From contig JAUIFF010000006.1 in assembly GCA_030429545.1 (NCBI GenBank), positions 62,001 to 126,000 on the forward strand: a DNA stretch of 64,000 bases, given 5' to 3'. Both the position numbers and the translations under genes were made by a program. Positions 2,836 to 57,292 of the stretch are shown here, in pieces (the first letter of the stretch is position 1; each line of letters begins with the position of its first letter). This DNA is from Polyangia bacterium (GTDB lineage: Bacteria > Myxococcota_A > Polyangia > Nannocystales > Nannocystaceae). Under the pieces are notes generated by a model. It was given only the letters and a program-made list of their open reading frames with translations, made no database searches and had not been told where the DNA came from.

Positions 2836-3105
2836 GCAACAATCATCGGGTTCAAGCCCCTAGCTGCAGTGCGACATTAACGGCGAGCCCGGCCGCTGCT
2901 CCTACGACGAAGACGAGGCCCGGTGGCTGTGCGAGGAGTTCATGATCTGTGAATAAGCAATAATCATCGGGTTCAAGCCCCTAGCTGCAGTGCGACATTA
3001 ACGGCGAGCCCGGCCTGAGCTCCTACGACGAAGACGAGGCCCGGTGGCTGTGCGAGGAGTTCATGATCTGTGAATAAGCAACAATCATCGGGACAACCCC
3101 CTAGC
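2749..3105 (+). repeat. Three tandem 121-bp copies of the 3' end of the upstream lipoprotein gene
   Basis: Copies begin at 2749, 2870 and 2991. The first is the genuine gene 3' end with its TAA and the following 30 bases; the other two lie entirely downstream of that stop. Copies 2 and 3 keep the same frame and stop codon but have no start. They are about 95% identical, differing at scattered sites (for example GTG/ATG four codons before the stop), so the duplication is fairly recent. Confidence 0.9.
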
Positions 3106-3106
3106 T

Positions 3107-3325
3107 GTCGAGGGTTTCATCGCGCGCTGGGGCTTTGTACGTCGCAGCTGTCGTGCACCGCCCATTCGCGACGAAATCGGCTCGTGCGGTGACGAGAAAA
3201 CCCCCGGCCTGCTCGCCCGTGATTGTTGCGAGAGGGTTTTGTGAATCGCTGGCTCAAGTGGACCTACCCGCAGATTCGACCACTCGCGGCGAAACCGGCT
3301 TGTGCGGTGACGAGAAAATCCGGGC
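3107..3325. repeat. Pair of diverged ~118-bp tandem repeats of unknown origin
   Basis: A shared block (CGCGACGAAATCGGCTCGTG at 3167 and CGCGGCGAAACCGGCTTGTG at 3285) and a GAGGGTTT match about 120 bp upstream of each define two diverged copies. They are not copies of either flanking gene end as those genes now stand. They may be remnants of the 3' end of a lost gene. Confidence 0.6.
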
Positions 3326-22686: not shown

Positions 22687-23196
22687 ATGCGCACGACGTC
22701 CCTGGTCCATGTAGGTCTGCTCGCCCTGTTGTCCGGCCTGTTGGTCGCCACCCCGGGTTGCAAAAAGTCGGGGGAGACCAACGTTCCCGATGAACAAGCC
22801 GAGGACGACGACGACGGCACCAACGACGGTGACGACGCCGAGGATGCCGACGACGCGGCCGAGGGTGCCGACGAAAGCGACGCTGCCGGCGACGACGCGA
22901 CCCCGCTGACAACCTCGTCGTTCGAAGAGACCGTCAACAATCACATGGAAGATGTCGCCAGTTGCTACGGCGATGCGGTGGCCGCCAATGCTGAACTCCA
23001 GGGCACCCTCGACGGGGTGTTCACCATCGCCGCCGACGGCACCGTCGCCGAGTTCAAGGCCGCCGAGGGCAGCTCACTCAACGACGAGGGGCTCAACGCC
23101 TGCATCACCGAAAAGACCAAGGACTGGGTGTTCGACAAACCAGCCGGCGGGGAAAATATGACCCTGAACTTCCCGTTTAATCTCACCCCCGGCTAG
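22687..23196 (+). CDS. Acidic lipoprotein with AgmX/PglI-type C-terminal domain
   Basis: A 169-residue protein with signal and lipobox (VATPGC), an Asp/Glu/Gly-rich acidic linker (residues 30-75) and a C-terminal domain (about 78-165). The domain begins SFEETVNNHMEDVASCYGDA and carries GTLDGVFTIAADGTVAEFKA and LNACITEKTKDWVF. This layout (one Cys in the first helix, one before the last helix) matches the TonB-like AgmX/PglI C-terminal domain found in gliding-related myxobacterial proteins. It may be a periplasmic adaptor. Its 3' end is duplicated downstream. Confidence 0.8.
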   Translation: MRTTSLVHVGLLALLSGLLVATPGCKKSGETNVPDEQAEDDDDGTNDGDDAEDADDAAEGADESDAAGDDATPLTTSSFEETVNNHMEDVASCYGDAVAANAELQGTLDGVFTIAADGTVAEFKAAEGSSLNDEGLNACITEKTKDWVFDKPAGGENMTLNFPFNLTPG

Positions 23197-23345
23197 GTCG
23201 CCACGGCAGGGGCTCGCTCAACGACGAGGGGCTCAACACCTGCATCACCGAAAAGACCAAGGACTGGGTGTTCGACAAACCGGCCGGCGGGGAAAATATG
23301 ACCCTGAACTTCCCGTTTACTCTCACCCCCGGCTAGGTTAGGTCG
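23066..23345 (+). repeat. 140-bp tandem duplication of the 3' end of the AgmX/PglI-type lipoprotein gene
   Basis: Copy 1 (from about 23066) is the genuine gene end including TAG and nine following bases. Copy 2 begins near 23206, is nearly identical (CTCAACACC against CTCAACGCC, TTTACTCTC against TTTAATCTC) and keeps the stop codon but has no start. A short start of a third copy (GTCGCCGCGGCGGG, then GCTCGCTCAA) follows near 23342. Confidence 0.9.
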
Positions 23346-34131: not shown

Positions 34132-36894
34132 AACTGTGGGAGCTACACCCTGTGAAGACCTGTCCCTAATGCCATCTTGCTGCGCAAGCCAAGCTTCGAT
34201 CGTGGCCACCTCGCGGATCCCCCCGCGACCGAGCTTGCGATAGATCGCTAGGGCGCGCTCAGCCTCCGCCCGCGCCACTGTCGGTGGTTCGCCGGCATCG
34301 AGCTTTGCCCGCGCGAGAGCAAAGCCGACGCGTGCGCGCTGCTCCGGCTGGACCTCCGCCTTTGCCAGCGCGAGTGCGGCTCGCTCGAGAACCTCTCGGG
34401 CACGCTCCGGCGAATCGACCCAAAGCTTTGCGATCCCAACCTCGCCCAGAGCGAGTGCTGTGAGAGGGTGCTCCGCCCCAAGCACGGCAAGGCGTCGCTC
34501 ATATGCGACTCGCACCCTGGCCGCGCCACCCTCCCGGTCGATCCCTGAGGCGACCTCGAGCGCCCCGAGTTCAAGCGCCACCTCGACCCAAAGAAGATGC
34601 TCCGCTCCGAGCAGACGCTCACGGATCGCCAGCGCCTTGCGAAAATGCTGGTGAGCCGTCGTCGGCTCCCCATTCGCCACACCGAGCCGTCCCAGATTTA
34701 GCAATACGTGTGATCGATCGAGCTCACCGTCATCGCCAAGCGCCACGCGAATCGCCAACGCCCGTCGCAGGTAAGCCCGTGCCTCACTGAGATACCCGCG
34801 CGCCAGATAGGCCTCGCCAATGTTGTTGAGACTCGCGGCGACCCGTGTGTGCGAGCCGCCGAGACTGCCCAAGCGCAGCGCAAGCGCACGCTCTTGCAGG
34901 TCGATCACCTCCTCCCACCGACCGAGCGCTGCGAGGGAAAGCCCCTGCGCCGACAGGGCGCTGGCCACTGCCACGTCTGAACTCGGAAGCGTCGCATAGA
35001 TCGCCTCGGCCTCTGCACCTGCGGCGAACGCCTCATGGTAACGCCCGATTGAGTACAGGTAGTGGCTGCGTAGCGACCGCACGCGCCCCTCGGTCGCCCG
35101 GCTTTCGCCCCGCCGAGCAAACGCTCTCTCAGTGTGACCGATCCCGCGACGTGCTCCCGAGAGCAGGCCAAGCGACGCGTCGACAATCGTGAGCTCGAGC
35201 CAGATCTCTGGGAGTATGGCGTCGTAGCGTGTGTCCTCAGCGAGTGCGAGGGCCCGCTCGAGCGTGGCTTGGGCCGCGAGAACCTCGCCACGCCGCAGCT
35301 CGACCTGGCCGTGCCGGAGAAGCGCCTCGACGAGCAGCGGCGGGTATTCGAGTGCCTCCGCCTCTGCGAGAACCTCTCGCACCGACGCCATGGCTGCACC
35401 CAACTTCCCGGCGAGGAAGAGGCGTTGGACCTCCTCCAGGCGCATGCGCAACGCCAGCTGTGCTGGCTCAAACGGCGGCGGCCTGACAACGTCGACCTCG
35501 AGGCAACTAGCGACCAATCGATACTCGAGCGGCTGCTTGGCGAGGAAAGCGAGGGTCGGTCCGTCCGCACTCCCAGCGGCATTGACCAGTTTGCGCAGGA
35601 CTTCGAGGCTTTGCTCGAGACAGATGCGCGAGGACTCCTGTCGACCTTCTTCCCCGAGGCAGACCTCACCGTAGGCCACCAGCCAGGCCTCGGCTGTCGC
35701 GTCGAGAGTCCGGATGAGTTTGGCCATCGGCACCTCCTCGTCCGGGCCAGCGCGCGCGACCAGAACGTGCCGCGCCTGGGCGTTCCAAGCTGCTTCGAGG
35801 AGCTGTGAAGGGTCACCACACTTGCCCTTTGCCGGCAGGGCAATCCCTCCGAGGGCGATCCCGAGAGCCGCGGCTCCACTGGCGAGCGTCCATCGCCACG
35901 CCCGCCTGCCGAGGCCCCGCTCGAGGGCGTCACAAAGCGCGTCGATCGTTGCGAAGCGGTCTTCTGGGTCGCACGCGAGCGCACGGGCCACAACCGGGTC
36001 GAGCCAACGCGGGAACCCGCGCCCGAGCCCCTGCGGTCCCGCTTTGATCGCCGCCACGTTGACGGCCGCAAATGGTCCGCGCCCGGTAAGTGCCTCATAA
36101 AGTGCCACCGCGAACGCAAACTGATCGCTGCGCGCGCTGCCAGGCCTGCCACTCAGCTGCTCCGGCGACATGTAACGCGGCGTGCCCACAAGCCACGAGC
36201 CGGTCTGCCCCTCGCGCTCGGGCGAACGCGCGAGACCGAAGTCTGTCACTCGGACACGACCGTCGACACCGACGAGCACATTGTCGGCCTTGAAGTCGCA
36301 GTGGACGATCCCCTGGCGGTGCGCCGCCGCGAGTCCGCGACCGGCGTCGACGTACGCCTGGACGATCGCCCGCACCGAACGCCTTGGCGGTCCCTCAACC
36401 CACGTCCGCAGCGTCTCCCCGCGGACAAGCTCCATCGCCAGGAAGACCGCGTCGTCGCCCGCAACAACATCAAAGACAACGATGACATTGGGATGGGCGA
36501 GACGCGCGAGCATCTGCGCCTCAGCAAGTAAGCGACCCCTCACCTCCGCGTCGGTGCGGCGAAGCACCTTGAGGGCAACCTCGCGGTCGAGCACACGATC
36601 GTGGGCTGCGTAGACCACACCCATGCCACCGGCGCCAACAAGCTCGCCCACCTCAAAGCGCTCGCTCAACACGACACCCCGCACAAGCGTCCGCCCCGTC
36701 GAGAGCTCGCCCGGACAGCTCCCCGAACTCGAGGACCCACGCGCGGCTCCGATCGCCGCCGCTGCAAGAAGATCGAGACAGCGCGGGCAGCCGTCGATGT
36801 GGGCATCTATCGCCTCGCGGCGGGCGTCGTCCACTTCGACGAGCCCGTGGAGCTCATCCTCAGACAAGCATGTCCGGCTGATTCGCGCGCTCAC
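34126..36894 (-). CDS. Zinc-finger/Ser-Thr protein kinase with TPR repeats
   Basis: From GTG 36894 (GAGG five bases upstream) the protein has about 922 residues; a TTG at 36963 would add 23. The N-terminus carries an anti-sigma-type H-x3-C-x2-C motif (HIDGCPRC, residues about 32-39). A Hanks kinase follows (about 80-335): VGAGGMGVVYAAHD, EVALKVL, HCDFKADNVLV, DFGLARS, GTPRYMSPEQL. The HRD Arg is replaced by Cys (non-RD kinase). A hydrophobic segment (about 335-355) precedes a long C-terminal TPR array. It likely couples a signal to the cluster sigma factor; this link is inference. Confidence 0.9.
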   Translation of the reverse strand: MSARISRTCLSEDELHGLVEVDDARREAIDAHIDGCPRCLDLLAAAAIGAARGSSSSGSCPGELSTGRTLVRGVVLSERFEVGELVGAGGMGVVYAAHDRVLDREVALKVLRRTDAEVRGRLLAEAQMLARLAHPNVIVVFDVVAGDDAVFLAMELVRGETLRTWVEGPPRRSVRAIVQAYVDAGRGLAAAHRQGIVHCDFKADNVLVGVDGRVRVTDFGLARSPEREGQTGSWLVGTPRYMSPEQLSGRPGSARSDQFAFAVALYEALTGRGPFAAVNVAAIKAGPQGLGRGFPRWLDPVVARALACDPEDRFATIDALCDALERGLGRRAWRWTLASGAAALGIALGGIALPAKGKCGDPSQLLEAAWNAQARHVLVARAGPDEEVPMAKLIRTLDATAEAWLVAYGEVCLGEEGRQESSRICLEQSLEVLRKLVNAAGSADGPTLAFLAKQPLEYRLVASCLEVDVVRPPPFEPAQLALRMRLEEVQRLFLAGKLGAAMASVREVLAEAEALEYPPLLVEALLRHGQVELRRGEVLAAQATLERALALAEDTRYDAILPEIWLELTIVDASLGLLSGARRGIGHTERAFARRGESRATEGRVRSLRSHYLYSIGRYHEAFAAGAEAEAIYATLPSSDVAVASALSAQGLSLAALGRWEEVIDLQERALALRLGSLGGSHTRVAASLNNIGEAYLARGYLSEARAYLRRALAIRVALGDDGELDRSHVLLNLGRLGVANGEPTTAHQHFRKALAIRERLLGAEHLLWVEVALELGALEVASGIDREGGAARVRVAYERRLAVLGAEHPLTALALGEVGIAKLWVDSPERAREVLERAALALAKAEVQPEQRARVGFALARAKLDAGEPPTVARAEAERALAIYRKLGRGGIREVATIEAWLAQQDGIRDRSSQGVAPTVR

Positions 36895-38285
36895 ATCGAC
36901 CTCAACCCTGCACCTGAAGCAACAAGGCTCGCCCACTATGGTTGCGAAGGGCCGTATGAGCAAGCCGCCTCACTGAGCCTTTGAGCGCCACCACCAGTCG
37001 AAACAACCACGCCTCCGCGCGCCACCAGTCGAAACAACCACGACCGCACCACGATTCGCGGCCATCTTTTTCCCAGGCTACCGAGCCCGAAGTCGTGAAC
37101 AGCAACTGCCACTACTCCCACGACTACGCCCGCGCCCAAAGTTGTGGGCCGCCACGCCACGATTCGCGGTGACCTTTTGCCAGGGTGCGAGCCCGAAGCA
37201 GCGACGCTGTCAACCCACTGCGAGCCCCCGCGCGCCACCAGTCGAAACAACCACGCCCGCACCACGATTCGCGGTGATATTTTTGCCAGGGTGCGAGCCC
37301 GAAGCAGCGACGCTGTCAACCCACTGCGAGCCCCCGCGCCCACCAGTCGAAACCACCACGCCCGCACCACGATTCGCGGCCATCTTTTTCCCAGGGTGCG
37401 AGCCTGAAGCGGCGACGCTTATCTGCTGCGAGCCCACCGAGTCGAAACAACCACGCCCGCACCACGATTCGCGGCCATCTTTTTCCCAGGCTATCGATCC
37501 CAAAGCGGCGACACTTTCGGAAGCGGGTGGGGTGCTCCGTTGAAAAAGTGTATATTCAAACGAAAGCCGGTCGACCACGTGCACTTGAAGTTGTGTTGCG
37601 GCTGGCGAGCGGACATCGACCTCGACCCTCGCCCCCAAAACGGCGACGCTGACAGCCTACTCCGAGCCGCTGTCAGCCCTACTCCGAGCCGACTACGCCC
37701 CCGCGCGCCACCAGTCGAAACAACCACGCCCGCACCACGATTCGCTGTCATCTTCTTGCCCCCCTAGTCGACTACTACGCCAGTCGAAACCACCACGCCC
37801 GCACCACGACTCGCTGTCATCTTTTTGCCAGGCTGCGAGTCCGAAGCGGCGGGACCCACTGCAAGCCGCTCCCGTGCCCCTATGCCCCCGCGCGCCACCA
37901 GTCGAAACCACCACGATTCGCGGTGATATTTTTGCCAGGCTGCGAGTCCGAAGCGGCGACGCGTCAGCCTACTCCGAGCCGCCTACTCCGAGCCGCCCCG
38001 CGCGCCACCAGTCGAAACAACCACACCCGCACCACGATTCGCGGCGATATTTTTGCCAGGGTGCGAGTCCGAAGCGGCGACGCTGTGGTGGACCCACTGC
38101 AAGCCGCTCCCGCGCCACTACGCCCCCGCGCGCCACCAGTCGAAACCACCACGCCCGCACCACGATTCGCGGTGATATTTTTGCCAGGGTGCGAGTCCGA
38201 AGCGGCGACGCTGTGGTGGACCCACTGCAAGCCGCTCTCGGGCCGCAGCCTGGCAAAAATAGCCCGCGCGATCCATTCGAATCGT
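36895..38285. repeat. Hairpin-repeat array 1 (about ten degenerate ~95-130-bp units)
   Basis: Core AGTCGAAACAACCACGCC-type starts occur at about 36996, 37027, 37240, 37345, 37440, 37713, 37782, 37900, 38010 and 38138. A full unit continues CACGATTCGCGG, ATATTTTTGCCAGGGTGCGAG, GAAGCGGCGACGCTG and CTGCAAGCCGCTC. The last unit ends in an inverted copy of its own first half: 38169-38206 pairs with 38231-38267. ORFs here are Gly/Arg/Val repeats with no domain. A 37540-37650 island is unrelated to the unit and recalls the sequence just upstream of the kinase start. Confidence 0.85.
38169..38267. repeat. Terminal hairpin of array 1
   Basis: Left arm 38169-38206 and right arm 38231-38267 are inverted copies over about 37 bases with roughly 80% pairing, including TATTTTTGCCAGG/CCTGGCAAAAATA. 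The tip holds a small stem GTGG/CCAC. It lies 19 bp from the 3' end of the TonB-type gene. Confidence 0.85.
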
Positions 38286-39071
38286 TTACTGGAATTTGAA
38301 ATCGAACGTGACAGTCGAACAGGTTTTGACCGGTCGACCGGCGATGCGCTGGGGTTTGATCCGCCATTTCTTCACGGTCTGCCGACAGATCGCATCCACG
38401 GCCGGATCGCCTGGAAACTTCTCGACGGTTTTTACGGAAGCGACTTTGCCATCGGGATTGAGGCAAAATTGTGTCTTGTTGCGACCGCTGCGGCGGCCGA
38501 ACATCCCGTTGGACGTCGTCGATAGTTTTTGCTGGTTTGGGTCTGGGCAGTAGATGCAGCGGGCCATGACTGCGGCGATCGGCTCGGGTGGTGGTGCCTG
38601 TTCGACTCGGCGTTGTGTCAGGCCGATTGGCATTTTGATGCCGATCGTTTCTGTGCCGGTTAACGACCCTCCGGGGATGCCCCCGACCTTACCTCCGGGG
38701 ACCCCATCTTTGCTGCCTTTGGGGTTGCCGAACTGCGTCGACTTTGAGGTTGTTGGCTTGGGGATGGCGGTTGGGATGACCTCGACTGGCACTTCCTCGT
38801 CGGGCTCGGGCTTTTGCTCTTCATCCTGTTGTTCGTCGCTTCCGAGCGGTGGTGGCGGTGGTGGTGGTGCGGCCATCGGCACCTCGCTCGACAGTTGGAA
38901 CATGATGTAGTCGGTCGCTGGGGCATCGACGCGGGCGATGTCGAAGCGATCGGCGGCATAGGTGAATGCCAACATGCCGACGGTTGCGAGCGCGGCGGCA
39001 TTGCCGGACAAAAACAGACGCAGGCGGCGTTTGGGGTCGCCTTGATGATTGCTGAGGTAGTGTTCAAACAT
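38286..39071 (-). CDS. TonB-family energy-transducer-like protein
   Basis: From ATG 39071 (ribosome site GGGAG) the protein has 261 residues. It has a cytoplasmic basic N-terminus, one membrane helix (about residues 22-42, NAAALATVGMLAFTYAA), a Pro/Glu-rich periplasmic linker (PPPPPPP, QKPEPDEEVPVEVIP), a Gly-rich segment and a C-terminal TonB-like domain (GKVASVKTVEKFPGDPAVDA, CRQTVKKWRIKPQR). Four Cys in the C-terminal part are unusual for TonB. No ExbB/ExbD in the window. Hairpin array 1 occupies its 3' flank. Confidence 0.85.
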   Translation of the reverse strand: MFEHYLSNHQGDPKRRLRLFLSGNAAALATVGMLAFTYAADRFDIARVDAPATDYIMFQLSSEVPMAAPPPPPPPLGSDEQQDEEQKPEPDEEVPVEVIPTAIPKPTTSKSTQFGNPKGSKDGVPGGKVGGIPGGSLTGTETIGIKMPIGLTQRRVEQAPPPEPIAAVMARCIYCPDPNQQKLSTTSNGMFGRRSGRNKTQFCLNPDGKVASVKTVEKFPGDPAVDAICRQTVKKWRIKPQRIAGRPVKTCSTVTFDFKFQ

Positions 39072-39600
39072 GGCACGCTCCCGGGCCCACGCCTGGACGT
39101 CCCACCAGTTGACGTGGCGAAGATGCACGTCTCCCGAGTGCGTGCATTTGCAAGCATCACGCTCAGATCTGGTGGAAATATCCGGGTGGTGTCACCCGCG
39201 AGATCCCCCTTGGCCAGGCCGATTTGTCATCTTTCATCGGCTCGGAGTCACCCGCGCCTTGGGGCGCCCACCACGATCGGCAAAGGTTCGACAAGTCGGC
39301 AAAAATATGCCTGCGTGTACGCACCTACACAGGCACCTCCAACATGTCCCTTTGGACATCTACCACTGATATCGAAACCGGCCGCTCGGACATTCGATAA
39401 TTTCCCGCCAAATGCCTTCTGAGCACGCTTATTGGGCCAAACACTGATTTATCCTCGATCGTCCACGCGAGCCATTTGCAGGTGCGCAAACCTCCTCGCA
39501 CATCGAACTGTGATCCGGGCCACTCGGCACAAACACCGATTTATGGACATCCTGAGGTGCGAGCTGCTTGAATTTCAGTCTCGTCCGAGGAGATGCTCCA
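39072..39600. other. 530-bp intergenic region, no credible gene
   Basis: The gap lies between the divergent TonB-type and hydrolase genes. It holds a TGYANNTRCA motif at 39143-39152, the only one between 28.8 and 46.9 kb, and nothing else recognisable. Small ORFs lack domain features. Confidence 0.5.
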
Positions 39601-40515
39601 TTGATTACCGCACCCGAACGCTTGGCCCGTCGTGTCCTCAATGCCCAAGGTTTAAAAAGCCGGTGGTTGATGACTTCGGTCGGCCGCATCCATGCGCTCG
39701 ACGGTGTCGGCCAGGGGCCGTTGCCACCGATTGTGATGCTCCACGGTCTCAGTGCCAACGCGGTCAGCTACTCGGGTTTGCTGCGGCGGTTTATCCCGCA
39801 TTCGCGCCGGGTCATTGCCCCCGACATGCCGGCCCATGGCTTTAGCGACGTACCGGCCAGGGGCCTGGGCCGCGATGCCATGCTCACCGGCCTGCACGAA
39901 ACCCTCGACCGCTTGATCGATGAACCTGCAATTATTATTGGCAACTCGATGGGTGGGCTCGGAGCCATTCGCTACGCGATTGCTCGCCCCGAGAAGGTCC
40001 GCGGGTTGGTGCTGATCTCCCCCGGTGGTGCGCCGATGCCCGAGGGCGAGCTGCAGGGGTTTTTGGATACCTTCCGGATCGACCGCTACACCGACGCGCT
40101 GCACTTTGTCGACCGCATGTTCGCCCACTCGCCCCGGGTGTTTCGCCACGCCCTCGCCATGGGTGTGAAAGGTCGATTTGCCCACCCGGAACTGCGCCGT
40201 CTGATCGACGACATCCGGACCGAGGACCTCCTCACGCCGGACGACCTGCAGCAGCTTGCGATGCCGGGGCTTTTTGTCTGGGGCCGCGAAGAGTGGATTT
40301 TGCCGCGCTGCCAATTTGAGTTTTTCCACGAGCATCTGCCCGAGCACATCGAGCTCGAAGAGTGGGCAAACTTTGGTCACTGCGGGTTTATGGAGCAGCC
40401 TGAGGCATTGACCCGGCGGATTATTCGGTTCGTCCGCGGCTCATTTCGCGAGGGTTCGAGCTTGCGGGTGTCGACGAACATGCGCGAGCGTGCCAAGCTT
40501 CGCGCATCGGCCTGA
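39601..40515 (+). CDS. Alpha/beta-hydrolase
   Basis: From TTG 39601, preceded by GAGGAG at eight bases spacing, the protein has 304 residues; TTG 39568 is possible but lacks such a site. The fold is clear: PIVMLHGLSANAVSYSG (oxyanion strand/loop), the nucleophile elbow IGNSMGGLGAIRYA with Ser, a candidate Asp in the LFVWGREEWILP region and the catalytic His in ANFGHCGFMEQPEA. Substrate unknown (esterase/lipase or C-C hydrolase). An acyltransferase gene follows 68 bp downstream, suggesting a lipid role. Confidence 0.88.
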   Translation: MITAPERLARRVLNAQGLKSRWLMTSVGRIHALDGVGQGPLPPIVMLHGLSANAVSYSGLLRRFIPHSRRVIAPDMPAHGFSDVPARGLGRDAMLTGLHETLDRLIDEPAIIIGNSMGGLGAIRYAIARPEKVRGLVLISPGGAPMPEGELQGFLDTFRIDRYTDALHFVDRMFAHSPRVFRHALAMGVKGRFAHPELRRLIDDIRTEDLLTPDDLQQLAMPGLFVWGREEWILPRCQFEFFHEHLPEHIELEEWANFGHCGFMEQPEALTRRIIRFVRGSFREGSSLRVSTNMRERAKLRASA

Positions 40516-40583
40516 CATCACCCGATACTGCGGACGACGTCCCAGTCGCCCAGGACCGGCCAGCTTCTGGCGGGCTCGAAGTC

Positions 40584-41522
40584 GTGCGTACGCACGGACC
40601 AGAATCCGGGCAACCCAGCCCCGACGTCGTGCCCGGGCAAGTGCCCGAGCAACCTCCGAAGTCCGAGCAGCCTCCAAAGCCCGAGCAGCCTCCAAAACCA
40701 CCGGGGCCCGACATCGTCGGTGACACCACCAAGTTCCCCGTGAGTGCAAGTGCGCTGCAAAAGGCGGTCGACGGGTTTGATGTGCTCGCCAAATACCACC
40801 GCCTAGACGTCCGCGGGTTGGAGCGAATCCCGGCCGGCAGGGCTGTGATGGTCGGCAATCACAACGGCGGCCTCAACCCGGTCGACGGCCTGTTTTTGAT
40901 CCCCTACTACCGCGAGATAGGCTACCGCGACCCGGTCTACATCCTCGCCCACGACCTGCTGTTTCGCATGCCCAAGGTCGCTAAGGTCGTGCGCTCGGTC
41001 GGCATCTTACCCGCCCGCCGCGGCATTGCCCGCGACCTTTTAGACGACGGCCGCAAGCTCCTCGTGTTCCCCGGCGGCGACATCGAAAACATGCGCCCCT
41101 TCGCCGACCGCCGCAGGATCGTCCTCGCCGGCCGCACCGGGTTTTTGCGGCAAGCGATCCGCACCGGGGCCCCGATCGTGCCAGTGGTCGGAGCCGGCAG
41201 CCACGAAACCCTGCTCGTCCTCAGCCAGGGGCGAAGGTTGGCCAAGCGCCTCAAGCTCGACCGCCTATTCCGGATCCACTCGCTCCCCATCCTCCTAGCC
41301 GCCCCCTGGGGAGTACTGATCGGCCCGACCTGCGCCCTGCCCTACCTCCCGCTGCCCTCCAAAGTCACCGTCGAAGTCGGCCACCCGATCGACCCTGGCC
41401 CACGCGACCCAGCCGGAGGAACCGAGCGAAGGCTATCGGTCCTGTACGCCCACGTCGAAGCGACCATGCAGCAGATGCTCGACCAGCTGTACGAAGAGCG
41501 CCGCTATCCAGTTGTGGGCTAG
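40584..41522 (+). CDS. Lysophospholipid acyltransferase (PlsC/DGAT-like)
   Basis: A 312-residue protein starting at GTG 40584 with a Pro/Gln/Glu-rich N-terminal tail made of a short repeat (EQPPKPEQPPKP). The acyltransferase domain shows GNHNGGLNPVDGLFLIPYY (family block I), ILPARRGIARDLL, and LLVFPGGDIENMRPF (FPxGxxE-type block III). It probably transfers fatty acyl groups to a lipid alcohol at the inner membrane. It follows the hydrolase gene on the same strand and may share a transcript. Confidence 0.88.
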   Translation: MRTHGPESGQPSPDVVPGQVPEQPPKSEQPPKPEQPPKPPGPDIVGDTTKFPVSASALQKAVDGFDVLAKYHRLDVRGLERIPAGRAVMVGNHNGGLNPVDGLFLIPYYREIGYRDPVYILAHDLLFRMPKVAKVVRSVGILPARRGIARDLLDDGRKLLVFPGGDIENMRPFADRRRIVLAGRTGFLRQAIRTGAPIVPVVGAGSHETLLVLSQGRRLAKRLKLDRLFRIHSLPILLAAPWGVLIGPTCALPYLPLPSKVTVEVGHPIDPGPRDPAGGTERRLSVLYAHVEATMQQMLDQLYEERRYPVVG

Positions 41523-41564
41523 GCGGGTCCGACACAAGTACGTAGGGTCGACAGGAACAATTTT

Positions 41565-42575
41565 ATGAGCGAAGCAAAGCGCGGAGAGCTGATCCTCTAC
41601 GAGTCGCCAACAGGCAAAGTACGCGTCGAAGTCCACCACGAAGATGAGACGTTTTGGCTGTCACAGCGACAGATGGCCGACCTGTTTGGGGTGGATGTTC
41701 GGACCGTGAACCACCATCTGAAACAGATCTACGAAAGCGGTGAGCTGCACGAAAAGGCAACTATCCGAAATTTTCGGATAGTTCGAAGTGAAGGAAATCG
41801 TTCAGTTTCTCGCCAAATCACCCACTACAACCTCGACGCGATCATCTCCGTCGGCTACCGCGTCAACAGCGCACAAGCGACCCGTTTCCGCATTTGGGCG
41901 ACCGCGACCCTACGCGAGTTCATCATCAAGGGCTTCGTCCTCGACGACGAGCGCCTCAAGTTACACAAGCGCTTCGGCAAGGATTACTTTGACGAACTCC
42001 TCGAACGGATCCGCGAGATCCGGGCCAGCGAGCGCCGCTTTTACCTGAAGATCACCGACATCTACCAGCAGTGCAGTGTCGACTACGACAAGCACGCGGA
42101 GACGACAAAGACCTTCTTCAAAACCGTCCAAAACAAGCTCCATTGGGCAGTGACAGGCAAAACCGCGGCTGAGATCATCGCAGCACGAGCCGATGCAACA
42201 AAGCCATCCATGGGGCTGACAACTTGGAAGAACAGCCCTGACGGCAAGGTACTCAAGCGAGATGTCGCCATCGCCAAAAACTACCTCATCGAAAGCGAGG
42301 TCAAGGAGCTCGAACGCATTGTCTCGATGTACCTCGACTACGCCGAAAACCAGGCCGCACGCCAAATCCCAATGAAAATGACGGACTGGATCCGCAAGCT
42401 CGACGCTTTTCTAACCTTCAACGAATACGAAGTACTCACCAACGCCGGACAAGTGTCGGCCGCCGTCGCCAAGCGGCTCGCCACGGAGGAGTACACAAAG
42501 TACCGCGTGCGGCAGGACCAAGAGTACGAAAGTGATTTTGAGCGGGCAATGAAGCGGGCTCAGAAGAAACGTTGA
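41565..42575 (+). CDS. RhuM-family protein
   Basis: A 336-residue protein of full RhuM length with ribosome site AGGAA. The N-terminal winged-helix-like region shows FWLSQRQMADLFGVDVRTVN and ITHYNLDAIISVGYRVNSAQ, the family hallmark, then ATRFRIWATATLREFIIKGF. RhuM proteins were first noted in Salmonella pathogenicity island 3 and are often found in mobile or patchy islands; their biochemical role is not settled. Located 42 bp after the acyltransferase and immediately before hairpin array 2, so the whole interval may be an inserted segment. Confidence 0.92.
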   Translation: MSEAKRGELILYESPTGKVRVEVHHEDETFWLSQRQMADLFGVDVRTVNHHLKQIYESGELHEKATIRNFRIVRSEGNRSVSRQITHYNLDAIISVGYRVNSAQATRFRIWATATLREFIIKGFVLDDERLKLHKRFGKDYFDELLERIREIRASERRFYLKITDIYQQCSVDYDKHAETTKTFFKTVQNKLHWAVTGKTAAEIIAARADATKPSMGLTTWKNSPDGKVLKRDVAIAKNYLIESEVKELERIVSMYLDYAENQAARQIPMKMTDWIRKLDAFLTFNEYEVLTNAGQVSAAVAKRLATEEYTKYRVRQDQEYESDFERAMKRAQKKR

Positions 42576-42589
42576 ATACACAATTACTT

Positions 42590-43343
42590 ACGACTGCCCA
42601 CCAGTCGAACAACGCCACCCCAAAGGTTCTGTCGCCGTGAACTGACCCCTGAGTGGCTACGCTGTAGTCGACTACTGCAACCGCGCACACCCGGTCTAAC
42701 CGGCACAAAACAACCCGCACCCGCCCCCACAGTCGAAACGACAACGCCACCCCAAAGCTTCGCAGCGGACTTTTGCCCGTGAACCTAGCCCCGAGTGGCA
42801 CAGTCGAAACAACAACACCCACCCCAAAGGTTGTTCGCGGCGGACTTCTACCCGTGAACCTAGCCCTGAGTGGCTACGCTGTAGCGGACTCCCCGCGCAC
42901 GCCCAGACAACGCCACTCCCTAAGGTTCGCGGCGGACTTTTGCCCGTGAACCGAGCCCTGAGTGGCTACTGTCGTCGGCTACTGCAAGCCGCTCACGCCC
43001 GGCACGAAACAACCCGCAAACGTCGAAACAACAACGCCACCCCAAAGCTTCGCGGCGGACTTTTGCCCGTGAACCGAGCCCTGATTGGCTACGCTGTCGT
43101 CGGCTACTGCAAGCCCAAGCCCTGAGTGGCGATGCTGTAGTCGGCTACTGCAAGCCGCTCACGCCCGGCACAAAATAACCCGCGTCCGCCACCCAGTCGA
43201 AACAACAACGCCACTCCCTAAGGTTCGCGGCGGACTTTTGCCCGTGAACCGAGCCCTGAGTGGCGACGCTGTAGTCGGCTACTGCAAGCCGCTCAGGGCC
43301 GGTCTCACGGGCAAAAGAACCCGCGCGTCCGCCCGCATGTCAT
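42590..43343. repeat. Hairpin-repeat array 2 (five to six ~100-140-bp units)
   Basis: Units contain AGTCGAAACAACAACGCCAC, CAAAGCTTCGCGGCGGAC, TTTTGCCCGTGAACCGAGCC, CTGAGTGGCTACGCTGTAG and TCGGCTACTGCAAGCCGCTC. The core AGTCGAA occurs at about 42603, 42731, 42801 and 43195, with variants near 42905 and 43021. The last unit ends in an inverted copy of its first half (43227-43264 with 43288-43335). The unit is recognisably homologous to array 1. No gene is present. Confidence 0.85.
43227..43335. repeat. Terminal hairpin of array 2
   Basis: Left arm 43227-43264 and right arm 43288-43335 pair almost perfectly over about 37 bases apart from one bulge of about ten bases, including CTTTTGCCCGTG/CACGGGCAAAAG and GCCCTGAG/CTCAGGGC. 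The tip carries a small stem GTAG/CTAC. It lies just downstream of the helicase stop codon. Confidence 0.9.
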
Positions 43344-46300
43344 CTAGTCGAGGGAAGGGGATGCGAGTAGAGCTTCCACATCGTCCATCGTCAGCTTCTT
43401 ACCGCCCGTCGTATCTCGCCCAAGAGCACTCTCGGCGACCTCTCGCTTGCGCTGCCCGAGCTCCACCATTTTTTGCTCGACCGTATCTTCGCAGACCAGC
43501 CGGTACACATTGACGGGCTTGTCCTGGCCGATTCGGTGTGCGCGGTCGGTCGCCTGGTCCTCCACGGCTGGGTTCCACCACGGGTCGAAGTGGATCACGG
43601 TATCGGCCTCGGTCAGCGTGAGGCCGGAGCCGCCTGCTTTCAAACTGATGAGGAACACTGGCGGGCCTGACTTCGATTGGAACTTTTGGACCAATTCCTC
43701 GCGGTTTTTGGTGCCGCCGTGGAGCCACAGGTGCTCGATCTCTAGCTCTTCTAGCACCCCTGCCAGGATTCGTTGCATCGACACGAATTGGCTGAACACC
43801 AGGACTTTGTGGCCGCCACCGATACAGTCGGCGATCAGTTCGCGGAAGGCCTCGACCTTGGTCGATGGTGGCACGGTTGTGGTGTCGGGCAGGCCTAGCA
43901 GTTTGGGGTCGCAGCAGACCTGGCGCAGGCGCGTGAGTGCGGCCAGGATTGTCATTTGCGAACGCTCCAGGCCGACGTCGTCGATCCGGCCTTGAATCTC
44001 GTTGCGCGCGGCCTTGAGGATCCGGTTGTAGAGCCCCAGCTGGGTGCGGCCAAACCGGCAGTAGAGCGTTTGCTCGGTCTTTGGCGGCAGTTCCTTGGCG
44101 ACATCTTCCTTGCGGCGGCGCATGATAAACGGCCGGACCCGGGCTCGCAGGGCCTCCAGGGTTTTGGTGTCGCCCTCCTCGATCGGCCGCACATAGGTTT
44201 TTTGGAAAGCCGTCAACTTGCCCAAAAAGCCAGGTGCCAAGAAATCAAAGATGGCCCAAAGGTCAACTAAATGGTTTTCGACTGGCGTACCGCTGAGTGC
44301 CAGGCGGTGGTCGGCCTTGAGTTTTTTGGCTGACTTGGCCGTGCTCGTCGTCCAGTTTTTGATGTACTGGGCCTCGTCGAGCATGACGTAGCGAAATCGG
44401 ATCTTGCACAGGTCGTCGACATCGCGGCGCATGATGCTGTACGAGGTCACGATCACGTCGCTTTTTTTGAGCAGCCGGCGTTTTTCAGCCCGATCGCTGC
44501 CGTGCCACATCACGATCGACAGCGACGGCGCCCACTTTTTGACCTCCTGTTTCCACACCGAGATCACAGAAGTTGGACATACAATCAACGACGGCATCGC
44601 CCCCTCTTCCTCCTTGGCCTTGGTCAGGAGGGCGAGGGCCTGCACGGTTTTACCGAGGCCCATGTCGTCGGCCAAAATGCCGGTCATGCTGTTGATGTGC
44701 AGCTGCCACAGCCAAGCAAACCCGGAGCGCTGGTAGGGCCGTAGCTTGGCGTTGAGGGCCTTGGCTTTTCGCGGCCCGCGGCTGGCTCGCTTGCCCGTCA
44801 TGTTGGACATCAGCTTCTTGACTTCGCGGGCGACCTTGGCGGTCGGGACCGCCCCTAAAAGCCGTGAAAGTGTGCCCAACTCGAGGGTCGAAATCTCCGC
44901 GTGTCCGGCCTTATCAAAGTCGATGGCGCCGGCAGCCTCGGCCACGGCATTGAGAATTTGCGGGTCGAGTTTGGCAACTGACCCATCGGCCAGGGTGACC
45001 CAGCGACGGCCGTCGTGCAGCCAGCGAAGCAGGTCGCGAAAGCTGATGAGGTCGTCGGAGCCATCGATCACAACCTTGGCTTCGATGTCGAGGACCGAAC
45101 CGTCGCCGCTGCTCACCGAGATGCTCGGGGTCGGCGACTTGCTGCGGATCTTGGGCAGCTTGGGGACCCGCTTTTCCCAGTCCTCCGGCATGGTTTGCAG
45201 GCCCACAATCATGAACTCGATCGCGCGGTCACCTTGGGCGACAAATGCCTCGTCGATCGAATCCCACTTGAGGTGCATGTTGGTCAGCACCCGGCGTTTT
45301 TCGGCCTCGCCGTCGAGGTCGCGATAAAACGAAATCGTCTCGTCGCCGGCCGTCATCGCGTAGCGTGGCGACTCTGGGTCGGTGCCCTTGATCTCGAGCG
45401 TGACATTGTCGTAGCGGACGCCTAGCCGCACCATGATCTTGTTGGCATCGCCCTCGATGTTGGCGGTGACCCCAGTGATGCTGCGCGAGTCCGAGGCCAG
45501 GGCATAAAGGTCGTTGCGCGGCACCCCAACCGTTTGCAGTTGGTCGGACAGGTTGTCCATATGCTCGGCGCCAACCCGGCTGTCCATGACGATCCGCGGC
45601 TGTTTCGCAATCGCCTCGAGGACCCACGGCGGGGTGTCGGGGACCGCAAAAACCTCGCCTGTTTCGGGCACCAAAAACCATGTGGGCGCGCCGGCGATGA
45701 TCCGCCCCTTGTCGATCTCAAAGGTGCGGTCAGTGTCGGGAAGGGCCAAAAACCCGTGGAGGTCGACGCCGGCATCGGTCTTGCGGGATTCTGCTTGTAC
45801 ACGCAACACCAGCGGCGACGCAGCAAACTGGAGGCGGCCAACGCCCTTGAGGCTCACCGAGCTTTGCCGGGCGAAATACAAAAACCCGGCGAGCGCGGCA
45901 TCTTCTAAAATATGTGCACCATCATCGGTTTCGTCGATCTCCTGATCGAGGTAAAACTGGATCATGCGGTCGGCCGGCGACAGGCCCTCTTGCAAACGTT
46001 TGCGACGGCGGCGGTTGGTCGGCGAAGCGCCCCCGCGAAACACCGTGACATGCCAGCTGCCGCGCCGCAGCTCGATCTGGTAGCGGCGTTTGGAGTGGCT
46101 CGACGCGGCGAGGTCCTCGACCCATGGATTTTGGGTCATGGTGATTTCGCTGCCCTGCTGATATTGCTTGCGCACCGTTAGGGCCAGGGCGGCGCTGTGG
46201 TGGCAGATTTTCTCCCAACCGTCGGTAAATGTCGGGCACGTGCAGTGACCTTCGAGCGTGCCGTCGGGGCTGAGTTTGAGGCTCGCCGTGTGGGGCACCG

Positions 46301-46466
46301 GGTTGGAGCCTTTGACCTTACCGCGAACGGTATCGCCGTCGTAGACGACATCGGACACCCGCTTGGTCTCAAACAACTCGACACCTGCCTTATAGGCTTT
46401 CGGGCTGACAAGACTGGCGAGTGCTTCGGGCTCAAAAAGGGGGAGAAATGCTTCGAGCTTGGACAC
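43344..46466 (-). CDS. SWIM zinc finger/SNF2-family helicase
   Basis: From GTG 46466 (AGGAA upstream) the protein has 1040 residues; the frame extends further but without family features. An N-terminal SWIM zinc finger (CTCPTFTDGWEKICHHSA, a CxC...CxH type) is followed by a middle domain, then the SNF2 ATPase: GILADDMGLGKTVQALALL (Walker A), MLDEAQYIKN (DEAx box), LALSGTPVENHL and FLISLKAGGSGLTLTEADTV (motif V), ending with AHRIGQDKPVNVYRLV. These ATP-driven DNA translocases act in repair or transcription recycling. Hairpin array 2 lies on its 3' side. Confidence 0.93.
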   Translation of the reverse strand: MSKLEAFLPLFEPEALASLVSPKAYKAGVELFETKRVSDVVYDGDTVRGKVKGSNPVPHTASLKLSPDGTLEGHCTCPTFTDGWEKICHHSAALALTVRKQYQQGSEITMTQNPWVEDLAASSHSKRRYQIELRRGSWHVTVFRGGASPTNRRRRKRLQEGLSPADRMIQFYLDQEIDETDDGAHILEDAALAGFLYFARQSSVSLKGVGRLQFAASPLVLRVQAESRKTDAGVDLHGFLALPDTDRTFEIDKGRIIAGAPTWFLVPETGEVFAVPDTPPWVLEAIAKQPRIVMDSRVGAEHMDNLSDQLQTVGVPRNDLYALASDSRSITGVTANIEGDANKIMVRLGVRYDNVTLEIKGTDPESPRYAMTAGDETISFYRDLDGEAEKRRVLTNMHLKWDSIDEAFVAQGDRAIEFMIVGLQTMPEDWEKRVPKLPKIRSKSPTPSISVSSGDGSVLDIEAKVVIDGSDDLISFRDLLRWLHDGRRWVTLADGSVAKLDPQILNAVAEAAGAIDFDKAGHAEISTLELGTLSRLLGAVPTAKVAREVKKLMSNMTGKRASRGPRKAKALNAKLRPYQRSGFAWLWQLHINSMTGILADDMGLGKTVQALALLTKAKEEEGAMPSLIVCPTSVISVWKQEVKKWAPSLSIVMWHGSDRAEKRRLLKKSDVIVTSYSIMRRDVDDLCKIRFRYVMLDEAQYIKNWTTSTAKSAKKLKADHRLALSGTPVENHLVDLWAIFDFLAPGFLGKLTAFQKTYVRPIEEGDTKTLEALRARVRPFIMRRRKEDVAKELPPKTEQTLYCRFGRTQLGLYNRILKAARNEIQGRIDDVGLERSQMTILAALTRLRQVCCDPKLLGLPDTTTVPPSTKVEAFRELIADCIGGGHKVLVFSQFVSMQRILAGVLEELEIEHLWLHGGTKNREELVQKFQSKSGPPVFLISLKAGGSGLTLTEADTVIHFDPWWNPAVEDQATDRAHRIGQDKPVNVYRLVCEDTVEQKMVELGQRKREVAESALGRDTTGGKKLTMDDVEALLASPSLD

Positions 46467-46728
46467 AAACGTTCCTAAGTGCTGGATGGGCCTGGCGTGT
46501 TTCAGGCAAAGTTGTCGTCTGTGTCGCAGCAGCTGGCTACGCACAGACCGACCAGGGACCAAAAAAGGTCGCGATACGGTTGTGGACATCGCCAAAGCTC
46601 CACACTGGCGCCCCGTTGACGTCGGGTCCATTTAACACGGGCGATCGACCTCGTCTACTTGAATTCCGTTGCCTTGGGCGGTATTGCACACACAACGTTC
46701 TGCGCAACTGACGCGAGCAACACGTTCT

Positions 46729-55382: not shown

Positions 55383-56987
55383 ATGACTATTAAATCACGC
55401 ACTCAAGCTCGCCGCGTCTTTGGGCTCGCCCTCGTGCTCGCCTGTGGCCTCGCGGCCGGTTGTAAGAATAAAGACCAAACCCAGACCCAAGCACCCGCTG
55501 CCTCGCCGCAACATCCGACTCCGACAATCGCGGCTGACTCGGCCGGCTATCAAAATGTGTATGTCGAATCGCGGGTGGCCGCCGAGCCAACCGAAGAAAA
55601 CCCCGACCTGCTCGGCTACGAGACCCTTAGCGATGGCCAGCGGGTCGAAGTTGTGACCTACGTCCACACCTATCCCGACCCGATCGAAACCTATCCGCGC
55701 GTGTGGTGGGGAGGTAGTTGGTACTACAACATTAACGGCAACTTTGTGTACTACAACCCGTACTGGAACGCTTGGACCTACTACTGGGGTCCGCCCGCAC
55801 CGCTTGTATTTGCATGGAACTACTACTACCCGTGGTGCCCGTACACCTGGGGAGTTGGGTTTTACGGTCGCGGCTGGTATTGGGGAGGCGTTGGCGTCTA
55901 CGGCTACCACGCCTACGGCAACCGCTACTACCACAACTATTACGGAGGTCGCCCCTCGCAAAACGGTCAGCGCCGTCCGTCGATGAATGCGTCGCGCGGG
56001 GGTCAGGGTGGCAACGCTGGTCGCCCAGGAAACGCCGGGCGTCCATCCAACGCCGGGCGTCCCGCCAACGCGGCCCGTCCGTCAAACGCCGGACCCAACG
56101 GCTTGACCGCCCGTCCGGCAACAACTGCCCGCCCCGGCCAGGGTTCACGCCCAAGTCGGACGCCAGGTGCCGGTCAACCCGCCACCAAAACCCTGGCTCC
56201 GCGCCCTGGTTCAGGCCCCCGCCCGGGCTCGTCGCCGGCGTTTAGCAACAAAGGTTCGCAACCCCGTCCCGGGGCTAGCCCCAGCCTCAAAGCGCCTGGC
56301 AATCCTTCGCGACCGGGTCAAACCGGTGCGATCGGCAGTCGCTCGCCGAGCTCTCGCCCCGGCCAAAGCCCCACCGTCGGCAGCCGCTCGCCGAGCTCTC
56401 GCCCCGGCCAAAGCCCCACCGTCGGCAGCCGCTCGCCGAGCTCTCGCCCCGGCCAAAGCCCCACCGTCGGCAGCCGCTCGCCGAGCTCTCGCCCAAGTGC
56501 AGCGCTCACCAATCCACCGCGGCCGTCGAGCAACAACAACTTCCAGCGTGGCTATGCCGAACCGGGCCGCAACCCCAACAACCGCGGCACCTACAGCCGC
56601 AGCCGCACAGCGCCGTCGCGGGCACAGGCCCCATCGCGTACGAGCCCAAGTCGCTCGACCTCCTCTCGCCCAAATAGCTCCCGCAGCATCCCGAGCTACG
56701 GGTCGAGTTCGCGGCGCAGCAGCTCGCCGAGTCGTAGTAGCAGCAGTAGCTCGCGGCGCAGCAGTTCGCCAAGCCGTTCGAGCTACTCCCGCAGTTCCTC
56801 ACGCAGCTCATCGCGCAGCCCCTCACGCTCGAGCTACTCCCGTAGCTCCTCATCTCGCTCACGCGGTTCTTCGTCGCGTTCGCGCGGGAGTTTCTCCGGT
56901 TCCCGGAGTTCCGGACGCTCGAGCGGGCGTTCATCGGGTTCTCGCGGATTCTCGGGCGGGCGTTCGTCCCGTGGCGGTCGCCGCTAA
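55383..56987 (+). CDS. Lipoprotein with Tyr/Trp-rich core and Arg/Ser-rich tail
   Basis: From ATG 55383 the protein has 534 residues: signal with lipobox (CGLAAGC), a globular Tyr/Trp/Gly-rich region (about 100-195, NPYWNAWTYYWGPP and similar), then a disordered Gly/Arg/Asn/Pro region and a long Arg/Ser-rich tail (about 390-534). Four 45-bp repeats at 56334-56513 encode GSRSPSSRPGQSPTV-type units. The tail is highly basic and could bind acidic polymers such as surface polysaccharide or eDNA; this is inference. A strong terminator follows. Function unknown. Confidence 0.82.
   Translation: MTIKSRTQARRVFGLALVLACGLAAGCKNKDQTQTQAPAASPQHPTPTIAADSAGYQNVYVESRVAAEPTEENPDLLGYETLSDGQRVEVVTYVHTYPDPIETYPRVWWGGSWYYNINGNFVYYNPYWNAWTYYWGPPAPLVFAWNYYYPWCPYTWGVGFYGRGWYWGGVGVYGYHAYGNRYYHNYYGGRPSQNGQRRPSMNASRGGQGGNAGRPGNAGRPSNAGRPANAARPSNAGPNGLTARPATTARPGQGSRPSRTPGAGQPATKTLAPRPGSGPRPGSSPAFSNKGSQPRPGASPSLKAPGNPSRPGQTGAIGSRSPSSRPGQSPTVGSRSPSSRPGQSPTVGSRSPSSRPGQSPTVGSRSPSSRPSAALTNPPRPSSNNNFQRGYAEPGRNPNNRGTYSRSRTAPSRAQAPSRTSPSRSTSSRPNSSRSIPSYGSSSRRSSSPSRSSSSSSRRSSSPSRSSYSRSSSRSSSRSPSRSSYSRSSSSRSRGSSSRSRGSFSGSRSSGRSSGRSSGSRGFSGGRSSRGGRR
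56334..56513 (+). repeat. Four 45-bp in-frame tandem repeats
   Basis: Units start at 56334, 56379, 56424 and 56469. They are almost identical, with the last diverging after its first half, and encode Gly/Ser/Arg/Pro pentadecapeptides in the basic tail. Low divergence indicates recent or homogenised expansion. Confidence 0.9.
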
Positions 56988-57097: not shown

Positions 57098-57292
57098 TTA
57101 CCCCGACTGTGAAACTGCAACGAGACCCCTGACCGAACCCAACTGCGAAGCTGCCCCCAATTTACCCTGTTCCATGGGATAGATCGCAACGACAGACTGT
57201 CGAGAATCCTGACCTACCCCGACTGCGAAGCTGCCCCGTTTGCGCTGTCCCGCGGGATAAATCGCAACGACGGGCTGTCGAGAATCACCGTG
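57098..57292 (-). repeat. Tandem copies of the 3' end of the serine acetyltransferase gene
   Basis: The genuine gene end (+ strand from 57214: CTACCCCGACTGCGAAGCTG and GGGATAAATCGCAACGAC) is repeated at about 57134-57213 (AACTGCGAAGCTGCC, GGGATAGATCGCAACGAC) at 80-bp spacing. A short third copy lies at about 57098 (TTACCCCGACTGTGAAACTG). Extra copies lie downstream of the stop. Confidence 0.88.

What the first reader, a model, noticed from the sequence alone, without database searches (positions are those of the whole stretch)
36895..43343. Two related hairpin-repeat arrays with compensatory changes: a candidate undescribed structured element
Array 1 (36895-38285) and array 2 (42590-43343) share a start (AGTCGAAACAACNACGCC), a GACGCTG tip region and a CTGCAAGCCGCTC block, yet the stem sequences differ. 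Each array ends in a hairpin whose two arms changed together: ATTTTTGCCAGG/CCTGGCAAAAAT in array 1, CTTTTGCCCGTG/CACGGGCAAAAG in array 2; the tip stem GTGG/CCAC became GTAG/CTAC. Paired change in both stems is what selection on a folded RNA or folded single-stranded DNA produces. Units are repeated, non-coding and of 95-140 bp. Candidates: structured RNA, substrate for a single-strand recombinase, or a non-autonomous element moved by a factor elsewhere.
Basis: partly seen in the sequence, partly recalled or inferred. Interest (0 to 1): 0.82.

Follow-up and report, generated by a model that had tools for sequence, protein, structure and literature searches.

The report
Mobile hairpin repeats of Nannocystaceae myxobacteria
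The two repeat arrays are copies of a roughly 100-160 base hairpin element that has spread to dozens or hundreds of places, mostly just after the ends of genes, in a family of predatory soil and marine bacteria; its two arms keep matching each other while their sequence drifts, one particular strand is the one that folds, and nobody yet knows which enzyme moves it.

Summary
Observation confirmed and much extended. Each window array is a series of decayed tandem copies ending in one intact ~100-nt hairpin (38168-38268; 43226-43325), 17-18 nt from the stop codon of an opposite-strand gene. A covariance model finds 116 matches in this genome and homologues across Nannocystaceae (Enhygromyxa salina, several MAGs), none in 10 genomes of other families. 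Covariation is overwhelming: 98.5% of cells paired, 27 of 40 pairs with double changes, 0/500 shuffles. Elsewhere in the family the hairpin is the core of a fixed ~160-bp palindrome with ends CTAGCAGCC...GGCTGCTAG, in up to ~260 copies, often with the TAG of CTAG serving as a gene's stop: a mobile, REPIN/MITE-like element. The tip is the most conserved part. Wobble pairs fit one strand only (G.T far above A.C in every genus), so a single strand of fixed polarity folds (RNA or ssDNA). Arm-to-arm copying was seen directly but in only ~4 copies, so it does not explain all covariation. Not RAYT-driven (no Y1 transposase in five carrier genomes), not the msd of the retrons examined, not in Rfam. 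Mobiliser unknown. New variant of a known kind. The 1997 report of msDNA-like repeats in Nannocystis exedens could not be compared.

The parts
36996..38160 (+). Array 1: degraded tandem copies (left arm and tip kept, right arm largely lost); best-matched stretches 37165-37226, 37270-37332, 37375-37419, 37812-37878, 37919-37962, 38040-38116
   Evidence: Tandem repeat calls; nearly every unit is most similar to the array's own terminal hairpin, 79-98% identity
38168..38268 (+). Terminal intact hairpin of array 1 (CGCGG...CCCGCG, tip GACGCTGTGGTGGACCCACTGCAAGC)
   Evidence: Covariance model R1 103.6 bits; folds z -5.0 as RNA, -10.7 as DNA
38286..39128 (-). Adjacent gene (TonB C-terminal domain protein), stop codon 17 nt from the hairpin
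   Evidence: ORF, PF03544, distance
37519..37631 (+). Filler inside array 1: two pieces copied from coding sequence elsewhere (C24:651208-651266, 90%; C4:51511-51581, 77%)
   Evidence: BLAST rows; source ORFs
42603..43190 (+). Array 2: degraded tandem copies; matched stretches 42635-42718, 42761-42799, 42836-42884, 42928-43017, 43051-43115, 43115-43184
   Evidence: best match is always the array's own terminal hairpin
43226..43325 (+). Terminal intact hairpin of array 2 (tip GACGCTGTAGTCGGCTACTGCAAGC)
   Evidence: R1 103.1 bits; z -7.5 as RNA, -9.0 as DNA
43344..46631 (-). Adjacent gene (SNF2-family helicase), stop codon 18 nt from the hairpin; the ortholog in same-genus genome G001 has no hairpin after its stop
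   Evidence: ORF, PF00176, G001 locus

Best explanation
The arrays are local, decaying tandem duplications of a non-autonomous mobile hairpin element of the family Nannocystaceae. The element's core is a ~100-nt hairpin: variable but self-complementary arms, a conserved internal loop near the base, and a conserved tip (G-N-N-GC-U-GUA...UAC-U-GC-N-A-G). In most genera the core is framed by further palindromic arms to a fixed ~160 bp that sits at CTAG sites, very often the TAG stop of a gene. Shown: copy number, fixed length, palindromic ends, near-identical young copies, an element-free ortholog, compensatory evolution, single-strand polarity, strand orientation bias in this genome, adjacency to stop codons. 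Inferred: an enzyme encoded elsewhere recognises the folded single strand (tip and internal loops) and inserts it, with CTAG as target outside this genome; structural selection acts on the lineages that still move, while individual copies decay. Secondary hairpin effects then operate on resident copies: occasional copying of one arm onto the other, breakage at the tip giving half elements, and tandem duplication with loss of the right arm, which makes the arrays seen here.
For: 116 matches here; matches in 9 other genomes of the family and in 0 of 10 from other families of the class. Fixed element length with paired ends 141-166 bp apart (156-160 in most) and no long pair listed; ~265 left and ~266 right ends in E. 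salina SWB005. 99-100% identical copies at unrelated loci in G009 with only ~168 bp in common. Junction CTAG coincides with (or lies within 30 nt of) a gene's stop in 13 left and 20 right of 58 (SWB005 and others) and 12 left and 4 right of 19 (G009). Covariation. Tip and few other columns invariant across genera. G.T against A.C: G000 52:13, G009 106:6, g10 28:5, SWB007 12:2, G001 9:1, SWB005 133:66, and the array strand folds better in almost every copy. In this genome 52 of 62 hairpins face the 3' end of an opposite-strand gene, median ~20 nt; orientation agrees within contigs 53/61, and the hairpin strand has negative GC skew while other genes are unbiased, 133:125. Arm copying and half elements.
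Against: No mobilising gene was identified and no autonomous copy was seen; the listings of ends were cut off, so a rare long copy could be missed. Movement was not observed; it is inferred from identical copies and one element-free ortholog. In this genome the copies sit mostly 2-28 nt beyond the stop with no preference for TAG stops (16 TAA, 15 TAG, 11 TGA), so the CTAG target holds clearly only in the relatives (one local copy, L103, is flanked by CTAG on both sides). RNA and ssDNA cannot be told apart from sequence alone. The orientation bias puts the folded strand on the C-rich strand, opposite to what a textbook single-strand transposon inserting into the lagging-strand template would give.
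Confidence: 0.7

Rival explanations
1. A cellular structured RNA: the hairpin is a 3'-UTR or termination/processing element kept by selection at the end of each gene.
For: In this genome 52 of 62 hairpins face the 3' end of the neighbouring gene, median ~20 nt from its stop codon, in one fixed orientation; one copy is next to a 5S rRNA gene in L021; intact gene-proximal copies coexist with decayed distal ones.
Against: Wobble pairs fit the strand opposite to the gene's mRNA, so the mRNA is not the strand under selection. The ortholog in G001 lacks it. In relatives it sits on either side of genes in either orientation, and many copies are near-identical and recent.
Confidence: 0.12
2. An ordinary double-stranded MITE of a DDE transposase that targets CTAG (IS630/Tc1-type); matching arms are kept only by arm-to-arm copying during replication.
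For: Inverted ends, CTAG on both sides and fixed length; arm copying proven in L309, L310, L311, L312. IS630 preference for CTAG is from general knowledge.
Against: The centre is conserved across genera rather than only the ends; strongly strand-asymmetric wobble; young SWB005 copies mostly show single changes, 118 one-sided against 17 paired, so copying is too rare to account for the pattern. No IS630 search was run.
Confidence: 0.13
3. Retron-derived: the hairpins are msd-like templates spread by a retron-type reverse transcriptase, as was proposed for msDNA-like repeats in Nannocystis exedens.
For: Same bacterial family; a review describes Retron-Nex1 with several duplicated msr-msd repeats and no RT within a kilobase (PMC6868368). 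An RT of retron type (L047; orthologs L280, L290) had no recognisable msr-msd within about 400 nt in this genome and G009, where it is the only RT found. Msd hairpins beside related RTs in Enhygromyxa also have drifting, compensated arms and are repeated.
Against: The element has no msr and no visible priming-G region, and differs in base and tip from those msd hairpins; the model finds no convincing match at any RT locus, best 20 bits. G010 and G018 carry elements but no close relative of this RT was found there. Left and right ends are equally frequent genome-wide, so there is no 5'-truncation signature.
Confidence: 0.1

Closest known systems
REPINs / REP elements with RAYT transposases (PMC3116915, PMC3733652)
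   Same: Small dispersed extragenic palindromes; arms with compensatory changes and constrained length are described for REPINs; REP ends often supply a TAG stop codon to flanking ORFs; clusters occur.
   Different: Ends are CTAG-GCAGCC rather than GTAG- or CGTC-tagged; the most conserved part is the hairpin tip; 100-160 nt; no Y1 transposase detected in G000, G009, G010, G016 or G018.
Bacterial MITEs and small mobile repeats such as ERIC and related repeat units (PMC2759123, PMC2229807)
   Same: Non-autonomous, 100-170 bp, palindromic, intergenic, multi-copy.
   Different: Conserved tip and internal loops with arms free to drift; strand polarity of the fold; no known autonomous partner.
Retron msr-msd repeats of Nannocystaceae (Retron-Nex1, cited in PMC6868368)
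   Same: Same family of bacteria; repeated hairpins far from an RT; msd arms that drift with compensation.
   Different: No msr, no similarity to the msd base or tip seen beside Enhygromyxa RTs. The primary papers (PubMed 9157251, 12459273) are not held, so identity with the published repeats could not be checked.

Membership tests
REP/REPIN-RAYT system | Dispersed extragenic palindrome with compensated arms | tested here: met
REP/REPIN-RAYT system | GTAG or CGTC tag at the REP terminus | tested here: not met
   Ends are CTAG/GCAGCC in relatives
REP/REPIN-RAYT system | Y1 (RAYT) transposase in the carrier genome, usually flanked by the repeats | tested here: not met
   PF01797: none in G000, G001, G005, G009, G010, G016, G018; the Enhygromyxa/G007 Y1 loci carry no element
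MITE of a DDE transposon | Terminal inverted repeats and short target duplication | tested here: inconclusive
   Inverted ends and CTAG on both sides, but CTAG is palindromic, so duplication and retained ends cannot be separated
MITE of a DDE transposon | Autonomous element with the same ends | tested here: inconclusive
   No long end pair listed, but listings were truncated and no DDE family was searched
Retron msr-msd | msr with priming G upstream of the msd, complementary a1/a2 ends | tested here: not met
   No msr-like stretch in the element; direct reading of the sequence
Retron msr-msd | Homology to the msd next to a retron RT of the same family | tested here: not met
   R1 against 37 RT and Y1 loci: best 20.4 bits, others chance level
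Integron attC site | Inverse core and core sites RYYYAAC / GTTRRRY | tested here: not met
   Absent from the SWB005 consensus by direct reading
Known RNA family (Rfam 15) | Score above the gathering cut-off | tested here: not met
   Only a tRNA in the window; no hit at E<=1 in 36800-43400; sub-threshold miRNA hits on L138 are generic long hairpins

The most novel reading that the evidence does not exclude
A bacterial mobile element whose transposing form is a structured single strand of fixed polarity (RNA or ssDNA hairpin, recognised at its tip), moved by a protein that is not a Y1 transposase, possibly a retron-type reverse transcriptase without its own template nearby; in effect a bacterial SINE-like or new single-strand transposition system.
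Probability: 0.2. Interest if true: 0.88.

Novelty: new variant of a known kind. Interest (0 to 1): 0.6.

Why it matters
It is an abundant hairpin repeat family that did not match any family in the libraries searched, in a bacterial family of interest for natural products, and its compensatory evolution is unusually clear. It offers a natural data set for separating three processes that are often confused: selection on a folded strand, arm-to-arm copying in palindromes, and hairpin-driven tandem duplication and breakage. If the mobiliser proves to be an RT or an undescribed recombinase it would be a new way to move small DNA, and it would bear on the old claim of msDNA-like retrotransposition in Nannocystis.

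Tried and rejected
Target-primed reverse transcription: local truncated copies first looked 5'-truncated, but left and right ends are equally frequent genome-wide (265 against 266) and half elements broken at the tip keep either side; rejected. RAYT/REP: no Y1 transposase in key carriers. Retron msd in cis: no convincing hit at RT loci. Autonomous copy at L207 (lone ends 1.65 kb apart): the gene between is an ordinary predicted gene, not a recognisable transposase by inspection. Phage carriage: the single viral-contig match has no matching arms or CTAG ends by inspection. mRNA 3'-UTR hairpin: the wobble sense is wrong. Caveats: R1's seeds were picked with RNA folding in array orientation, which slightly favours G.T there; SWB005 copies were retrieved by tip sequence only and show the same direction. 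Gene calls were made with a simple ORF/GC3 script, not a gene finder. The ~4% arm-copying rate comes from inspection of a truncated listing.

Full report
WHAT IS THERE. Array 1 (about 36996-38268) and array 2 (about 42603-43325) each consist of degraded tandem units followed by one intact hairpin of 101 and 100 nt (38168-38268, 43226-43325). Both fold far better than shuffles. Nearly every unit of an array is most similar to that array's own terminal hairpin; the unit beside the array-1 hairpin is 96% identical and several distant ones are 79-88%. The units keep the left arm and tip and have lost parts of the right arm, so they are best read as local duplications that decayed.

HOW MANY AND WHERE. 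BLAST with array 1 gives 91 matches in this genome; a covariance model built from 33 intact hairpins gives 116, and matches in nine other genomes of the same family, with none in ten genomes of other families of the class. Contig lengths tie these relatives to Enhygromyxa salina SWB007 (G015), MAG Polyangia 2_bin.15 (G009) and MAG P_S1_bin.18 (G016), and a collection scan adds E. salina SWB005 (G029), so the family is Nannocystaceae. No Rfam family matches.

STRUCTURE AND COVARIATION. The hairpin has a nearly fixed length (98-102 nt), a basal internal loop, a 3-against-2 internal loop below the tip, a U.U mismatch and a short terminal stem. Of 40 pairs 27 show double changes; 98.5% of cells pair; no shuffle comes near. 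Across genera the arms are unrecognisable but the tip stays: columns G40, G43, T45, G46, T47, A57, C58, A63 are invariant.

THE ELEMENT IN RELATIVES. In G009 identical copies at unrelated loci share only about 168 bp, from CTAGCAGCCCGTGGCAAAAGTCCCG through the hairpin to CGGGACTTTTGCCACGGGCTGCTAG. In several further genomes complete copies run 160 bp or nearly so from GCAGCC to GGCTGC, usually between CTA and TAG. SWB005 has about 265 ends of each kind. The junction CTAG often is the stop codon of a gene, on either side. These facts make it a mobile repeat. In this genome the copies instead sit mostly 2-28 nt beyond stops of all three kinds, in one orientation relative to the gene (52 of 62), and the ortholog of the SNF2 gene in same-genus G001 has nothing there.

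WHICH MOLECULE FOLDS. If the palindrome mattered only as double-stranded DNA, imperfect pairs of type G.T and A.C would be equally frequent. They are not: on the array (tip) strand G.T outnumbers A.C in every genus examined, and that strand folds better in 49 of 61 (this genome), 50 of 54 (SWB005) and 17 of 17 (G009) copies (also 72:16). So one strand of defined polarity folds, as RNA or as ssDNA. It is not the strand of the adjacent gene's mRNA.

STRAND BIAS. In this genome the orientation is consistent along contigs (53 of 61) and the hairpin strand is C-rich (GC skew -0.033 +/- 0.005, intergenic -0.025), although other genes in the loci are split 133:125. The bias is weaker in SWB005. It points to insertion or retention linked to replication direction, but not in the sense expected for the known single-strand transposons.

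ARM COPYING AND BREAKAGE. But in 52 young copies one-sided changes to a wobble or mismatch (118 cells) far exceed paired ones (17, eleven of them one subfamily position), and near relatives in this genome are linked by wobble steps. Half elements broken at the tip keep either half, as expected from cleavage of a hairpin at its loop. These processes, together with tandem duplication, explain the arrays (inference).

WHAT MOVES IT. Unknown. No Y1 transposase was found in five carrier genomes including the very active G009. A retron-type RT is conserved in several carriers and shows no obvious msr-msd close by in this genome, but element-bearing G010 and G018 lack a close relative and the element does not resemble the msd hairpins beside the Enhygromyxa RTs. 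A DDE transposase with CTAG preference remains possible and was not searched.

VERDICT. A real, family-wide, structure-constrained mobile hairpin repeat; closest in behaviour to REPINs, but failing their defining tests of end tag and RAYT. New variant of a known kind, with a modest chance of something more unusual. Prior work on msDNA-like repeats in Nannocystis exedens (cited in PMC6868368) must be compared before novelty is claimed.

Noticed in passing
window 37519-37631: Array 1 contains two short pieces copied from unrelated coding sequences elsewhere (C24:651208-651266, antisense to its ORF; C4:51511-51581, sense), joined to each other: filler DNA that suggests template switching during array growth.
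   Followed up: partly
L286:730-2900, L285:2400-3000, L279:800-960: Enhygromyxa and G016 retron-type RTs are accompanied by one or several msr-msd units (GGATCGTTAGCC...GGTTTG hairpin CAAACC) whose msd arms differ completely between copies but stay complementary; some lie downstream of the RT.
   Followed up: partly
L047:1273-2577 (G000:C39:124085), L280, L290: Retron-type RT directly behind a SWIM-domain-like gene (named by eye), with no obvious msr-msd within about 400 nt in G000, G009 and G001: possible orphan retron RT.
   Followed up: partly
L046:630-2517 (G000:C24): A complete-looking retron (leader with a1/a2 repeats and msd hairpin GGGGTAGCGGGAC...GTCCCGCTACCCC, then a 518-aa RT) about 16 kb from one of the hairpin arrays; msd unrelated to the array hairpin.
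   Followed up: partly
L207:5540-5590 and flanks of many SWB005 copies: A second small palindromic repeat bounded by CTAG (CTAGCCCTAAATCA...TGATTTAGGGCTAG) is scattered in E. salina, often next to the hairpin element.
   Followed up: no
window 2747-3107, 23072-23338, 56332-56494, 57121-57286: Other high-identity tandem repeats (periods 121, 140, 45, 78 bp) in the window, unrelated to the hairpin family as far as seen.
   Followed up: no
window 41565-42575: RhuM-family protein (PF13310, E 2e-115) immediately upstream of array 2.
   Followed up: no
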